Part shown: piece after piece, positions 11,213 to 16,703 of the stretch
Layout: each line of letters starts with the position of its first letter
How positions within the stretch are numbered: position 1 is the first letter of the stretch
Assembly (NCBI GenBank): GCA_022616435.1
Contig: JAKEET010000154.1
Coordinates: 1-64,000, forward strand
From: Gemmataceae bacterium
GTDB lineage: Bacteria; Planctomycetota; Planctomycetia; Gemmatales; Gemmataceae
Length of the DNA stretch: 64,000 bases
Direction: 5' to 3'
Notes under the pieces: generated by a model
Seen by the model: the letters and a program-made list of their open reading frames with translations, nothing else
The model's database searches: none
Told to the model about the DNA's origin: nothing
Program-made: the position numbers and the translations under genes

Positions 11213-11637
11213 GCGTCATCGACGAGTCAACGCGCGACCTCGTCATGCGGCGCGCGAGTTTCCGATGCGAATATTGCCATCTGCCAGTCCAAGGTCAAGT
11301 CGCGGCGTTTCCAATTGATCACATCGAGCCAAGGTCTCGCGGTGGACAAACGGTGTTGGCCAATCTCGCGCTGGCGTGCCCCCATTGCAACGCCCATCAA
11401 TGGGCGCACACGGCGGACTTCGATCCCGAAACAGGTCGAGAGGAGCCGCTGTTCAATCCACGCACCGATGAGTGGAACGAACACTTCGTTTGGTCGAGTG
11501 AGGATTCGTGCATCCTCGTCGGCAAGACTCCCCGCGGTCGCGCGACAATCGCCCGTCTGCAAATGAATCACGCCAACGTCATCGCGGTCCGTCGCTTGCT
11601 GGTCGAACTCGGATTGTTTCCGGAGACGTCCCGATAA
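11209..11637 (+). CDS. HNH endonuclease family protein
   Basis: A 142-residue stand-alone HNH nuclease. The zinc-binding pairs are CEYC at residues 20-23 and CPHC at 57-60; the catalytic segment DHIEP is at 37-41, followed by the conserved SRGG and Asn52. This order matches small HNH proteins related to McrA-like nucleases. The GTG start at 11209 overlaps the stop of the preceding gene. No methyltransferase or restriction partner is nearby, so a role in defence is only a possibility. Confidence 0.88.
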   Translation: MSVIDESTRDLVMRRASFRCEYCHLPVQGQVAAFPIDHIEPRSRGGQTVLANLALACPHCNAHQWAHTADFDPETGREEPLFNPRTDEWNEHFVWSSEDSCILVGKTPRGRATIARLQMNHANVIAVRRLLVELGLFPETSR

Positions 11638-11804
11638 CCCAACCAATCGTCTTGCGCGGCGCGGCCATTGAGGCTATTGACACGGCCCAACACCCCTTCT
11701 AATGTAGGCACACAGCTTGTTGTCTGGCTCGGCCTGTCTCGCCCTCGGCGAGCGGCAACCGCGTTTCTTTCCCCCCAGGATGCCCGGCGGGGGTGGATGG
11801 TCCA

Positions 11805-14800
11805 ATGCACCCGATCTCGTCGCCAGAATGCGCACGCATCGCGCAAGACCTGCAAATCCGCAAAGTGCAAGTCGAAAACATCGTGCAACTGCTCGACGAG
11901 GGCCATACCGTCCCGTTCATCGCCCGCTATCGCCGGGAGCGCACCGCCGGCCTCAAGGAAGACGTGGTGCGCCAGGTCCAGTCCCGCGTCAATTTTCTGC
12001 GCAGCCTGCACGACCGCAAACAGACCATCCTCAAGAGCATCGAGCATCACGGCAAGCTGACCGACGAGCTGCGCCAGGCCATCCAGAGCGCGGACACGAC
12101 GCGGCGGCTCGACGATCTCTATCTCCCCTTCAAACCGAAAAAGCGCGGGCCGGCCGGCCAGGCCCGGGACCGCGGCCTGGAACCGCTGGCCCTGGCGCTG
12201 TGGCACAGCGACCCCGCCGTCGGCAACCTGGAAGAACTGCTGCCGGCGCTGGTCCATCCTGAGAAAGAATTGAAGACCGTGGACGACGTCCGCGCCGGCG
12301 TGGGCCACATCCTCGCCGAGCTGATCGCCGAAAGCGCCGAGATTCGCGCGCCGGTGCGGGCGGCGCTGTGGGAGCTGGGCAAGGTTGCGGCGGCCAAGAG
12401 CGACAAGCTGGGCGAGCATCAAGGGCTCGAATACAAGGATTACTTTCAGTTCTCGGAGTCGGCCCGGCAGATCCCGGCCCACCGGATCCTGGCTCTCAAT
12501 CGCGGCGACAAAGAGGGCGTGCTGAAAATACACCTGGACTATCCGAAGGAGAAGATCCAGGAAATCGCGCTGGAGGCGTTGGCCGAACTGCTGCTGAAGA
12601 AGGCGGGCCAGGCGCCGCCGGCTTCTCCCGCGCCGGCAGCCAAGGAAACGCAGCCCGCTGCTCCGGAGGCGCCCGCCGCAGGGCCCGCCGCAGGGCCCGC
12701 CGAAGCGCCCCCGGCTGCGAGTGAGATGGCCGCGGCGCCCGCGGAGACTCCACCAGTCGCTTCCGACCAAGCCGCCGCGCCGCCCGATGTTCCTGCCGCG
12801 GAACCGGCTGCCCCGGCGCCGGAACTTGCGCCGCCGGAACTTGCCCAGGAAGCTTCCCCTGCCCCTGCCGCGCCCGAACCGGCGCCGCTGGTCGCGACGA
12901 TGGAGCCGACCAAGGCCGCGGCGCTGACGGGCGACCCGCTGGCGCCGTCGTCGGCTTTTCGCACGCCGCATGCGGCGTTTCTGAAAGCGGCGCTGGACGA
13001 CGCGTTGACACGGCTGCTGCTTCCGAGTCTGGAGCGCGAGATTCGCCACGAATTGACCGACGAAGCCGAGGCGCACGCCGTCGCCGTATTCGCTCGCAAC
13101 CTGCGCAGCCTGCTGCTGCAGCCGCCATTGCGCGGCAAGCGCGTGCTCGCCGTCGATCCGGGTTTTCGCGCCGGCTGCAAAGTGGCGGCGCTCGATGAAT
13201 CGGGGAACCTGCTCGGCCATCTGGTGATTCATCCGTTCGCGCCCCCGCAACGCAAGCAGCGCGAGAAGGCCTCTGCCGCGCCCGCCGCGCCGAGTGCGCC
13301 CGCGCCGAATACGCCGCCGGCCGAGGCCGCTACGCAGCCGGCACAGGCGGAAGTGACTTCGGCATCTCCACCGGAGGCGACGACGCCGGACACTGCGACG
13401 CCAGCTGCGGCGACGCCAGCTGCGGCGACGCCGGCTGCGGCGACGCCGGCTGCCACGACGCCGGCAATGTCCGCGCCGGCCCCGGTCGAAGCGACGGCGA
13501 CATTGCCACCGCCCGAATCGCCACCGGTTCCGCCACCGTCTGAGCCGGCGCCGAATGCGGAGACCCCTGCGGCAACCGCAGGGGCACCCGAAGCTCCGGC
13601 CGTCGCCGCGGCGCCCGCGGCGCCCGCGGCGCCCGCGGCGCCCGCGCCGCCCCCCGCGCCGCCGCCCGTGGACAAGAAAGCCGAAGCCAAGAGCCAGCTC
13701 AAGGACCTCATCGCCAACCATCGGCTTGACGTGATCGCCCTGGGCAACGGCAACGGCTGCCGGGAAACGGAAGAGCTGATCGCCGACCTGATCGCCACCG
13801 AAGTGCCCGAACTGTCCTATGTCATTGTCAACGAGGCGGGCGCCAGCGTTTACTCGATCAGCCAGATCGGCCGCGAGGAGTTTCCCGCCTGCGACTCCAC
13901 GCTGCGCAGCGCCATCTCCATCGGCCGGCGCTTGCAAGACCCGCTCAGCGAGCTGGTGAAGATCGACCCGCAGAACATCGGCGTCGGCCTCTATCAGCAC
14001 GACATGAGCCGCAAGGAGCTGCGGGAGTCGCTCGACGGCGTGGTCGAATCCTGCGTCAACCTGGTCGGCGTCGACGTGAACACCGCGACGGTGCCGCTGC
14101 TGCGCCACGTTTCCGGATTGAATCAGATGGCCGCCCGCGAGCTGGTCGATTGGCGCAAGCAGCACGGACCGTACGCCAGCCGGCAGCAACTCGCTCAAGT
14201 CCCCGGCCTCGGACCGCAGCGCTGGGTGCAGGCAGTGGGCTTTCTGAAGATCGCCGGCGCCGCCAATCCGCTCGACCGCACCTGGATTCATCCCGAAAGC
14301 TACGACCTGGCCGAGAAGATCCTGGCCAGCGCCGGCCTTGCCGTGGCCGCGCTCGAGGACGCGGCGGCGCGCGATGACGTCCGCGGCAAGCTGATAGCCC
14401 TGCCGATCGAGGAGCTGGCGCGGACGCTGGGGGCCGCCCCGCCGACGATCTACGAGATGATCGACGCGCTCTTGAACCCGGGCTACGATCCGCGCGACGA
14501 GCTGCCGCCCCCGATTTTCAAGAAGGCCATCCTGCGCCTGGAGGATCTGCAGCCGGGCATGGAGCTGAAAGGAACGGTGCTCAACGTCGTTGATTTCGGC
14601 GCGTTCGTGGACATCGGCCTCAAGGACAGCGGGCTAGTGCATATCAGTCAGCTGGCGAATCGCTACATCAAGAGTCCGTATGAAGTCGTGGCGGTCAACG
14701 ACGTGGTCAACGTCTGGGTGCTGACCGTGGACATGGAGCGGCGCCGGGTGTCGCTGACGATGATCCCGCCGGGGACCGAGCGTCAGCCGCCCGAGCGCAT

Positions 14801-15467
14801 GCGGCGCCGCGACGAAGGCCGGGGGCCGGAGCGGCGGCCGCGCGGCCGGCGGCCGGATCAGGCGCCGCCGGGACAAGAAGGTCAGCCGGCGCCCCAGGGT
14901 GAGCTGGCAGGCGCGCCGGCAGGCGGGCAGGGGCGGCCGCGACCGGGAGGGCCGCCGGGCGAAGGCCGCGGACCGCGGCAGCCGCGCGGCCGGCATCACG
15001 GGCGCCACGGGCGACCGCCGCAACGGCAAGATGCGTCGGCAGGGCAGGGCGGCGGAGCGCCGGCCGAAGGCCGGCCGCCCGCGCGGCCGCCGTTGCCGCC
15101 GCGCAAGCCGCGCCGCGAGCCGCCCAAGCCGAAGCTGACGCAAGCAGCTCTCGAAGGCAAGGTGCCGCTGCGCACGTTCAGCGAATTGAGCGCGCTGTTC
15201 GCCGCCAAGAAAGACAAGGATGCGGCGGCGGTCCCGGCGCCGCCAGCGAGCGCAGCGCCAGGGACCACCGCGCAACCTGTCGCGCAGGCGAATGCCGCGC
15301 AGGCGAATGCCGTGCCGGCCAACGCCACGCCGCCCGTCGAGACGGCCAGTTCGCCGCCGGCATCCCCCGAGACCAGCCTGCCCCCGTCACCCTCCACGGA
15401 CGCCCCCGCGCTGGCGCCCCCCGCGCCCGTCCCGGCGGAGTCCGCCGCGTCGACGGAGAACCCCTGA
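11805..15467 (+). CDS. tex: Tex-family RNA-binding protein with Pro/Ala-rich insertions
   Basis: A 1220-residue Tex protein; the usual length is about 720-790. Known parts are in order: the Tex N-terminal helical region (VPFIARYRRERTAGLKE near residue 40), the YqgF-like domain (VLAVDPGFRAGCKVAALD from 447), the helix-hairpin-helix region (about 769-819), and an S1 domain (about 914-987, GTVLNVVDFGAFVDIGL). The extra length is low-complexity sequence at about 267-386, 483-624 and 990-1220. The second block contains 15-nt tandem repeats encoding ATPAA units; the tail is Arg/Gly/Pro rich, then Ala/Pro rich. Tex binds RNA and affects transcription and stress responses. GTG at 11793 is an alternative start; ATG 11805 has GGTGGA 7 nt upstream. 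Confidence 0.93.
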   Translation: MHPISSPECARIAQDLQIRKVQVENIVQLLDEGHTVPFIARYRRERTAGLKEDVVRQVQSRVNFLRSLHDRKQTILKSIEHHGKLTDELRQAIQSADTTRRLDDLYLPFKPKKRGPAGQARDRGLEPLALALWHSDPAVGNLEELLPALVHPEKELKTVDDVRAGVGHILAELIAESAEIRAPVRAALWELGKVAAAKSDKLGEHQGLEYKDYFQFSESARQIPAHRILALNRGDKEGVLKIHLDYPKEKIQEIALEALAELLLKKAGQAPPASPAPAAKETQPAAPEAPAAGPAAGPAEAPPAASEMAAAPAETPPVASDQAAAPPDVPAAEPAAPAPELAPPELAQEASPAPAAPEPAPLVATMEPTKAAALTGDPLAPSSAFRTPHAAFLKAALDDALTRLLLPSLEREIRHELTDEAEAHAVAVFARNLRSLLLQPPLRGKRVLAVDPGFRAGCKVAALDESGNLLGHLVIHPFAPPQRKQREKASAAPAAPSAPAPNTPPAEAATQPAQAEVTSASPPEATTPDTATPAAATPAAATPAAATPAATTPAMSAPAPVEATATLPPPESPPVPPPSEPAPNAETPAATAGAPEAPAVAAAPAAPAAPAAPAPPPAPPPVDKKAEAKSQLKDLIANHRLDVIALGNGNGCRETEELIADLIATEVPELSYVIVNEAGASVYSISQIGREEFPACDSTLRSAISIGRRLQDPLSELVKIDPQNIGVGLYQHDMSRKELRESLDGVVESCVNLVGVDVNTATVPLLRHVSGLNQMAARELVDWRKQHGPYASRQQLAQVPGLGPQRWVQAVGFLKIAGAANPLDRTWIHPESYDLAEKILASAGLAVAALEDAAARDDVRGKLIALPIEELARTLGAAPPTIYEMIDALLNPGYDPRDELPPPIFKKAILRLEDLQPGMELKGTVLNVVDFGAFVDIGLKDSGLVHISQLANRYIKSPYEVVAVNDVVNVWVLTVDMERRRVSLTMIPPGTERQPPERMRRRDEGRGPERRPRGRRPDQAPPGQEGQPAPQGELAGAPAGGQGRPRPGGPPGEGRGPRQPRGRHHGRHGRPPQRQDASAGQGGGAPAEGRPPARPPLPPRKPRREPPKPKLTQAALEGKVPLRTFSELSALFAAKKDKDAAAVPAPPASAAPGTTAQPVAQANAAQANAVPANATPPVETASSPPASPETSLPPSPSTDAPALAPPAPVPAESAASTENP

Positions 15468-15525: not shown

Positions 15526-15563
15526 AATCGTTTCGACTTTCCCGGTTCTTGCAGGAGAATCCC

Positions 15564-15899
15564 TTGTCCGCCGGCATGAGCGAACGCATCCGCATCCGCA
15601 TGGAGGCGTTTGATCACGAAGTGCTCGACCGCACCGCCCACGAGATCGTGGACACCGCGCAGCGGACCGGGGCGATCGTCCACGGTCCGATTCCGCTGCC
15701 CACGCGCATCGAGCGCTACACGGTGCTGCGCAGCCCGCATATCGACCGCAAGAGCCGCGAGCAGTTCGAGATCAGGACCCATAAACGGCTCGTCGATATC
15801 CTGCAGCCGACGGGCAAAACGATCGAGGCGTTGAACAAGGGCTTGAGCTTGCCGCCGGGCGTGGACATCAAGATCCGCGTCCTGTCCGGCAATGCTTAG
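15564..15899 (+). CDS. rpsJ: 30S ribosomal protein S10
   Basis: S10 is a head protein of the small subunit and, as NusE, part of the antitermination complex. The sequence matches S10 throughout: [20 protein letters not shown], the [19 protein letters not shown] loop and [14 protein letters not shown]. The TTG at 15564 is preferred because AGGAG lies 6 nt before it, giving 111 residues; the next ATG at 15576 gives 107 residues, closer to the usual 102-105, but has no Shine-Dalgarno site at a workable distance. S10 opens the ribosomal cluster, but here it is followed by a terminator-like hairpin and not by rplC. Confidence 0.95.
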
Positions 15900-15926
15900 A
15901 ATCGCCGACCAAGGACCCAGGCCGTT

Positions 15927-15950
15927 ACCCAGGTAGCGACCTGGGTTTTC
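15927..15950 (+). terminator. Terminator-like hairpin after rpsJ
   Basis: ACCCAGGT and ACCTGGGT form a perfect 8-bp stem (15927-15934 with 15939-15946), a 4-nt loop, then TTTTCT. This looks like a short intrinsic terminator or attenuator. About 20 nt downstream is TATACT (15968-15973), which could serve as a -10 box for a new transcript starting before rplD, though no good -35 box accompanies it. Confidence 0.6.
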
Positions 15951-16040
15951 TGTTGGCTATCGGTTTCTATACTAGACAGAACCCGCCGGCAGGCACGGGC
16001 TGCGACGGAGTTCTCGCCTGATAGTAGAAAGGTCGTCATC

Positions 16041-16703
16041 GTGGCCGCTGAAACGAGTCTGTTGAACCTGGCCGTCTACGATGCCGACGGCCAAACCGTC
16101 GGGGCGGTCGAAGTCGATCCGGCGGAGCTGGGCGGCAAGATCAACCGCCAGCTCTTGCACGAGGTGGTGCTGATGCACCGGGCCAACCAGCGGGCCGGCA
16201 CGCATTCGACCCTGCGGCGCGGCGAGGTCGCCGGCAGCACCCGCAAGCTGTTTCGCCAGAAGGGGACCGGCAACGCCCGCGTCGGCACGCGTCGCTCCAA
16301 CAAGCGCCGCGGCGGCGGCACCGCCAAGGGCCCCAAGCCGCGCGACTACGGATACCAGCTGCCCAAGCAAGCCGTCCGCGCCGCCGCGCGCATGGCCCTC
16401 TTGAGCAAGCTGCAAGACAACGAAACCGTCATCGTCGACTCGTTCAAGTTTCCGGAGATCAAGACCAGGCTGATGGCCCAGGTGCTCAAGAACCTCAAGA
16501 TCGACGGCCTCACGTGCGTCGTCGGCCTGGGCAAGAGCGACATCGACGACAAGCAGACCGTGTATCTTTCGGGCCGCAACATCCGCGGCCTGGACATCAC
16601 GCCGGCCGCGCAGCTCAATGCCTACACGGTGCTGCGCCCGAAACGGCTGCTGCTGACCAAGGCAGCGCTCACGGAGCTGTGCAAGTCGGCCAAGTGGAAA
16701 TAG
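16041..16703 (+). CDS. rplD: 50S ribosomal protein L4
   Basis: L4 binds 23S rRNA and lines the exit tunnel; in enterobacteria it also represses its own operon. The 220-residue sequence carries the conserved loop GSTRKLFRQKGTGNARVGTR and GTAKGPKPRDYGY, and the C-terminal globular part NIRGLDITPAAQLNAYTVL. It starts at GTG 16041 with AAAGG about 8 nt upstream. In most bacteria rplC sits immediately before rplD; here the 141 nt upstream are too short and hold no L3 sequence. Confidence 0.95.
   Translation: MAAETSLLNLAVYDADGQTVGAVEVDPAELGGKINRQLLHEVVLMHRANQRAGTHSTLRRGEVAGSTRKLFRQKGTGNARVGTRRSNKRRGGGTAKGPKPRDYGYQLPKQAVRAAARMALLSKLQDNETVIVDSFKFPEIKTRLMAQVLKNLKIDGLTCVVGLGKSDIDDKQTVYLSGRNIRGLDITPAAQLNAYTVLRPKRLLLTKAALTELCKSAKWK

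What the first reader, a model, noticed from the sequence alone, without database searches (positions are those of the whole stretch)
11805..15467. Tex protein enlarged by three Pro/Ala-rich blocks
The normal Tex domains are all present, but about 490 residues of low-complexity sequence are added at 267-386, 483-624 and 990-1220. Two blocks lie inside the protein, one within the YqgF-like domain. The C-terminal tail has an Arg/Gly-rich part like RNA-binding, phase-separating proteins. Codon-level 15-nt tandem repeats suggest growth by slippage.
Basis: partly seen in the sequence, partly recalled or inferred. Interest (0 to 1): 0.55.

Follow-up and report, generated by a model that had tools for sequence, protein, structure and literature searches.

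The report
Bulked-up Tex with conserved tail motif
A common bacterial RNA-binding transcription helper (Tex) has, in one class of planctomycete bacteria, grown long floppy acidic loops at several places and a floppy tail that hides one short, strongly conserved segment, which suggests a regulated tail rather than mere filler.

Summary
11805-15467 encodes a complete 1220-aa Tex protein with two disordered Pro/Ala-rich blocks inside it (one between beta-3 and alpha-A of the YqgF domain) and a 230-aa tail. The reading needs changing in four ways. (1) Enlargement is a trait of class Planctomycetia, not of this gene. Similar blocks sit at six different surface loops, with about 30 parsimony changes in a 170-sequence tree. 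(2) The blocks have a common character although their sequences do not align: 95 of 101 internal inserts are net acidic, while the tail stretch before the motif is basic in 87 of 88. Eleven other Pro/Ala-rich blocks in the same genome are neutral or basic. (3) The tail is not all low complexity. It holds a 29-aa motif (KPKLTQAALEGKVPLRTFSELSALFAAKK, residues 1108-1136), found in 117 of 148 Planctomycetia genomes and only in Tex in this genome. AlphaFold2 orders it (pLDDT 82-89) in a disordered tail. (4) An Arg/Gly tail is not special, since E. coli Tex has one. Slippage fits short arrays only. Best explanation: Tex with an RNA-binding tail pinned by a docking motif and tuned by acidic arms. 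Condensation is possible but untested.

The parts
11805..15467 (+). tex CDS, 1220 aa plus stop
   Evidence: structure 60, 69
11832..12044 (+). Tex_N domain (residues 10-80)
   Evidence: Pfam PF09371
12234..12557 (+). Tex central region (144-251)
   Evidence: Pfam PF22706
12603..12962 (+). Insert 1 (about 267-386), Ala/Pro/Glu-rich, net charge -11, predicted disordered
13251..13676 (+). Insert 2 (about 483-624) between beta-3 and alpha-A of the YqgF RNase H-like domain, Ala/Pro/Thr-rich, net charge -6, predicted disordered
13665..13937 (+). Second part of the YqgF domain (621-711)
   Evidence: Pfam PF16921
14055..14495 (+). Helix-hairpin-helix domains HHH_3 (751-814) and HHH_9 (821-897)
14550..14762 (+). 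S1 RNA-binding domain (916-986)
14769..15125 (+). Tail part 1 (989-1107), Arg/Gly/Pro-rich, net charge +14, mostly predicted disordered
15126..15212 (+). Conserved 29-aa Planctomycetia Tex motif (1108-1136), predicted ordered (helices 1113-1116 and 1125-1141)
15213..15464 (+). Tail part 2 (1137-1220), Ala/Pro-rich, net charge -6
12671..12710 (+). 12-nt tandem array x3.3 in insert 1
13377..13465 (+). 15-nt tandem array x5.9 in insert 2
13606..13660 (+). 9-nt tandem array x6.1 in insert 2
15281..15330 (+). 15-nt tandem array x3.3 in tail part 2

Best explanation
This is an ordinary, probably working Tex core (RNA-binding relative of Spt6) that carries a Planctomycetia-type disordered apparatus. 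Shown by sequence or prediction: the core is intact; acidic Pro/Ala/Glu-rich loops extrude from surface loops; after the S1 domain comes a basic Arg/Gly-rich linker, then a conserved 29-residue motif, then an acidic Pro/Ala tail. Inferred: the basic linker adds RNA affinity beside S1. The motif folds against a surface, most likely the Tex core itself, and so pins the tail. The acidic loops and end compete with RNA for the basic linker and S1 face, which makes RNA release or partner choice tunable. The loops lengthen and shorten freely, partly by slippage and repeat insertion, because only their charge, solubility and length are selected.
For: Intact core; VIA-align Z 38.9 to 3bzc over 631 residues at rmsd 3.3. 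Motif: 95 of 126 tails of 15 aa or more score over 10 bits, against a best score of 5.1 in 2520 shuffled tails, though the model was built from 94 of these tails, picked by pattern. An alignment of 43 of the motifs hits 117 of 148 Planctomycetia genomes, in 108 of them in the very open frame that holds Tex_N. It has one hit at E <= 10 in the window's own genome. Selection: over 147 related pairs, ungapped identity is 0.70 at the motif and 0.17-0.30 just beside it; pN/pS is 0.33 against 0.28 for the core. Two separate AlphaFold2 models order the motif after a disordered linker: window block means 87, 89 and 82 for residues 1111-1140, and L189 block means 88, 90 and 79 for 791-816. The non-helical residues between its two helices also score high, which suggests packing on something. 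Charge: 95 of 101 inserts net negative, linker 87 of 88 net positive, end 57 of 60 net negative; acidic on average at all six insert sites. Eleven other Pro/Ala-rich blocks of the genome have net charge per residue from -0.02 to +0.19.
Against: Coordinates and PAE were not available, so no docking site is shown. Core residues that track the motif (R767, W827, S942) also stay in some motif-less relatives, so they may only mark the clade. The window's own insert 2 is only mildly acidic (-6 in 142). Six of 101 inserts are not acidic. Sequences are related, so these counts are not independent events. Some Planctomycetia Tex proteins have neither inserts nor motif (30 of 138 Tex_N frames lack the motif in the same frame; several of these are cut or frame-shifted). 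No RNA binding, condensation or expression data exist for any of these proteins here.
Confidence: 0.42

Rival explanations
1. The conserved motif is a linear motif for another protein (RNA polymerase, sigma factor or ribosome) rather than a latch on the Tex core; the RG linker and loops are spacers that give reach.
For: It sits in a long flexible tail at varying distance from both S1 and the C-terminus (0 to 143 residues from the end). E. coli YhgF was reported to bind sigma-70 (PMC13298495, passages seen). Tails of other Planctomycetota classes also concentrate hydrophobic residues in their last 22 aa (n=24, Wilcoxon P 2e-5), and 10 of 24 carry a short [FLM][GASD][DEQ][LF][LKFA] end (null mean 0.02 to 0.2).
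Against: AlphaFold2 orders the motif within a single chain, with no partner given. No other protein of the genome shares the motif, and no partner could be sought with these tools.
Confidence: 0.33
2. The internal inserts are tolerated filler: slippage and repeat insertion in GC-rich DNA lengthen permissive loops, with no function beyond not harming folding.
For: Codon-identical short arrays; lengths from under 30 to 381 aa and unalignable sequence; a relative (L160) carries LARRASEG-like repeats in insert 1; related Tex without inserts exist.
Against: Tex stands out in its genome (421 Pro/Ala-rich residues, next 200, 557 gene calls), whereas filler by mutation should hit many genes. Acidic sign in 95 of 101 inserts at six sites, unlike other Pro/Ala-rich blocks of the same genome. 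Does not apply to the conserved motif.
Confidence: 0.3
3. The protein is a condensate-forming scaffold, like Bacteroides Rho with its disordered region.
For: Opposite-charge disordered blocks, RG-rich linker and RNA-binding S1 are the kind of parts described for RNA-driven condensation of BtRho (PMC13269538, abstract and introduction read).
Against: Composition alone does not show condensation; inserts are poor in aromatic residues (F, Y and W together about 0.6% of insert residues); RG tails are ordinary in Tex.
Confidence: 0.18
4. The blocks are an assembly or frame error.
For: GC-rich repeats are error-prone; three other genomes show the motif in another frame than the core.
Against: Frame-consistent blocks at the same sites in independent genomes of the same clade (L151, L153, L155/L043, L158, L160, L101), and the downstream motif is in frame.
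Confidence: 0.02

Closest known systems
Tex (P. aeruginosa PA5201, PDB 3bzc/2oce; E. coli YhgF)
   Same: All core domains in order; RG-rich disordered tail after S1, ending in E. coli with a short hydrophobic stretch (NSAMMDALAAAMGKKR)
   Different: About 450 aa longer; two internal acidic disordered loops; 29-aa motif placed inside, not at the end of, a 230-aa tail
Spt6 (eukaryotic elongation factor)
   Same: Core fold (Foldseek and VIA hits) plus long disordered arms (the latter recalled)
   Different: No SH2 family matched in Pfam; no sequence relation of the disordered parts was looked for
Bacteroides thetaiotaomicron Rho with its intrinsically disordered insert (PMC13269538)
   Same: Conserved bacterial RNA-binding transcription factor that gained a long disordered region holding short conserved motifs
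   Different: Different protein; the BtRho region has K/E-rich and prion-like (N/Q) parts, not Pro/Ala/Glu and RG; BtRho condensation is shown by experiment, here nothing is

Membership tests
Tex family | Tex_N and Tex central region | tested here: met
   90 and 86.8 bits, both over cut-off 32 and 27
Tex family | YqgF RNase H-like domain | tested here: met
   PF16921 143.5 bits in two stretches, split by insert 2; strands and helices of the fold modelled at high pLDDT
Tex family | Helix-hairpin-helix and S1 domains | tested here: met
   HHH_3 74.6, HHH_9 49.8, S1 66.3 bits, over cut-offs
Tex family | Overall Tex fold | tested here: met
   3bzc Z 38.9, rmsd 3.3, 631 aligned
Tex family | Nucleic acid binding and effect on transcription | not testable with these tools
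   needs protein
Spt6 | Tandem SH2 domain | tested here: not met
   no SH2 family at E <= 0.001 in Pfam scan; a remote SH2-like fold is not excluded
Condensate-forming transcription factors (BtRho type) | Long disordered region with conserved short motif | tested here: met
Condensate-forming transcription factors (BtRho type) | RNA-dependent condensation in vitro and in vivo | not testable with these tools
   no experiment possible

The most novel reading that the evidence does not exclude
Planctomycetia have turned Tex into a self-regulated RNA-binding machine. A class-specific 29-residue latch holds a basic RNA-binding tail on the core, and recurrently regained acidic arms, placed at any of six loops, act as RNA mimics that set the switch. 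This would be a bacterial parallel to the disordered regulatory arms of Spt6, evolved many times over in one class.
Probability: 0.22. Interest if true: 0.72.

Novelty: new variant of a known kind. Interest (0 to 1): 0.5.

Why it matters
Tex is widespread in bacteria, yet its molecular job is unclear. A short motif kept across a whole class inside an otherwise drifting tail gives a concrete handle: delete 29 residues and see what fails. The repeated gain of acidic disordered loops at different places of one protein, with charge kept and sequence lost, is a natural test case for selection on bulk properties of disordered regions in bacteria.

Tried and rejected
Genome-wide habit: tested by sampling 841,540 bases of the own genome (window plus 60 contig stretches). 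12 of 557 gene calls have a Pro/Ala-rich stretch, and Tex leads by far (a first sample gave 7 of 347). My gene filter (GC3 over GC2) is biased against Pro/Ala-rich genes. A rescue step added two ORFs to the larger sample and none to the first. Of the other 11, six were scanned in Pfam: two are kinases, one has a HEAT repeat, three have no family.

Docking site of the motif: I looked for core residues that go with the motif. Only R767, W827 and S942 stood out clearly (L142 and L409 less so), and motif-less relatives L191, L202 and L206 keep W827, so I assign no site. Model coordinates are not in the Python box.

Linkage to ribosomal genes: tex sits beside rpsJ only in L043/L155 (same contig), L101 and L160 of 179 loci, so this is local gene order, not a functional link.

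NCBIfam gave only partial matches below cut-off among the 25 rows shown, nearly all S1-type, with two ComEA-type rows. Slippage as the main driver: supported for arrays only. Intein, intron or frame error: no sign; the blocks read through in frame in independent genomes of the clade. Absence of SH2 in Pfam does not exclude a remote fold.

Print: searches listed no paper on planctomycete Tex or on this motif in the held open-access library (titles, abstracts' beginnings and some passages seen); the 2008 Tex structure paper is not held.

Full report
What is there. The frame 11805-15467 (+) encodes a 1220-aa protein. AlphaFold2 with a 51-sequence alignment of own-window and locus proteins models the core mostly above pLDDT 90 and the two blocks and most of the tail below 50. 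VIA-align gives Z 38.9 to 3bzc over 631 residues at rmsd 3.3, then the other Tex entries and SPT6 structures. Insert 2 lies between strand 469-475 (with short helix 486-490) and helix 624-639, the beta-3 to alpha-A loop of the RNase H-like fold. Insert 1 lies between helix 248-266 and the long helix 390-437.

How common it is. Tex_N was found in 53 of 59 relatives and 134 of 148 Planctomycetia genomes. Of 138 Tex frames in that class sample, 98 are at least 900 aa and 87 at least 1000, median 1068 (these are stop-to-stop frames, so somewhat too long). That the class is Planctomycetia is read from the names of such records and from recalled taxonomy. I extracted 180 Tex sequences including the window, with some duplicates and contig-cut ones, and mapped them on normal-size Tex. 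Inserts occur near reference positions 128-145, 188-197, 234-275, 343-358, 395 and 576-588 (Cohnella Tex numbering). In a tree of 170 distinct sequences these sites need 2, 6, 4, 7, 9 and 2 parsimony changes. Two sites are different loops of the same YqgF domain. Insert borders depend on the alignment, and adjacent sites (343/355) may be one.

Not a genome habit. In 841,540 bases of the own genome, 12 of 557 gene calls have a Pro/Ala-rich stretch. Tex has 421 such residues, the next protein 200.

Charge. Of 101 internal inserts of 40 aa or more, 95 are net negative (mean -0.108 per residue). The tail before the motif is net positive in 87 of 88, and after it net negative in 57 of 60. All six sites are acidic on average. 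Eleven other Pro/Ala-rich blocks of the same genome range from -0.02 to +0.19. In the window the figures are insert 1 -11, insert 2 -6, RG linker +14, motif +4 and end -6. The counts are not independent, because sequences share ancestry.

The motif. By eye, nearly all full-length Planctomycetia tails share one segment. A 29-column model built from 94 pattern-picked tails scores over 10 bits in 95 of 126 tails of 15 aa or more; the best of 2520 shuffled tails scores 5.1 (84 distinct motifs of full length). The model's seeds are among the tails, so the independent test is the genome scan: 117 of 148 genomes at E <= 0.01, against Tex_N in 134 of 148. In 108 genomes the motif is in the same frame as Tex_N. 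Of the 11 other rows, some are contig splits and three were shown to be frame changes in the tail; the extra rows in G005 and G046, with E 0.002-0.009, look like chance. The own genome has one hit at E <= 10, Tex itself. Of 24 tails of 40 aa or more from other classes, none scores over 10 bits. Within family f4, Tex proteins without the motif exist (for example L191, L202, L206). Purifying selection: identity 0.70 in the motif against 0.17-0.30 beside it over 147 pairs, pN/pS 0.33 against core 0.28, with synonymous changes near saturation. Two AlphaFold2 models order it after a disordered linker.

An older, wider ending? E. coli Tex ends RGGGNERPQNNRPAAKPRGREAQPAGNSAMMDALAAAMGKKR. In 24 tails from other Planctomycetota classes, hydrophobic residues gather in the last 22 positions (Wilcoxon P 2.4e-5), and 10 of 24 carry a short pattern such as LGDLL or FADFF (shuffle means 0.02 and 0.2; the pattern was written after seeing the tails). 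The Planctomycetia motif may be an extended form of this ending; that is inference.

Slippage. Four arrays show same-codon excess (P 0.0014, 0.0014, 0.0034, 0.043), but they were chosen as repeats. Whole blocks at lags 3-6 give 2 of 12 tests below 0.05. Slippage is a contributor, not the whole story.

Mechanism. Shown or predicted: intact core, disordered acidic loops, basic linker, ordered conserved motif. Inferred: the linker helps RNA binding, the motif docks (core more likely than partner, because it is ordered in single-chain models), and acidic parts compete with RNA. E. coli YhgF is reported to bind sigma-70 (PMC13298495, passages) and PA5201 to bind a promoter and repress it (PMC13340108, passages), so a polymerase-side partner remains open. 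BtRho shows that short motifs in a disordered region can control a bacterial transcription factor (PMC13269538, abstract and introduction).

Verdict. A real and well-described variant of a known protein. The length itself is ordinary for the class; the conserved motif and the kept charge pattern are the parts worth following.

Noticed in passing
L160 (insert 1 of its Tex): Insert 1 holds LLTLARRASEG-like units repeated about three times, which looks like an interspersed DNA repeat read in frame.
   Followed up: no
L156, L157, L163 (G003, G009, G025): Second, normal-size Tex copies (722-729 aa) beside an enlarged one in the same family; they group with non-class Tex in the tree, which suggests gene transfer.
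   Followed up: partly
L311, L312, L313: In three genomes a frame change in the RG-rich tail puts the conserved motif in another frame than the core; assembly error or true loss cannot be told apart.
   Followed up: partly
window 15549-16703: rpsJ follows tex, and what reads by eye as the uL4 gene starts 142 nt after it, so no room is left for rplC in the usual S10 order (uL4 label recalled, not tested).
   Followed up: no
window 11568-14291 (-): A 907-aa antisense ORF covers tex; most likely a GC-rich shadow ORF.
   Followed up: no
L227-L230 (family f38, another class): Tex proteins of a distant Planctomycetota family carry long acidic inserts near reference position 128-145, and three of the four end in NPFADFFK-like stretches.
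   Followed up: partly
L173 and L184 (G013, G049): Planctomycetia Tex with strongly weakened motif (24.9 and 13.7 bits) missed by the genome scan.
   Followed up: no
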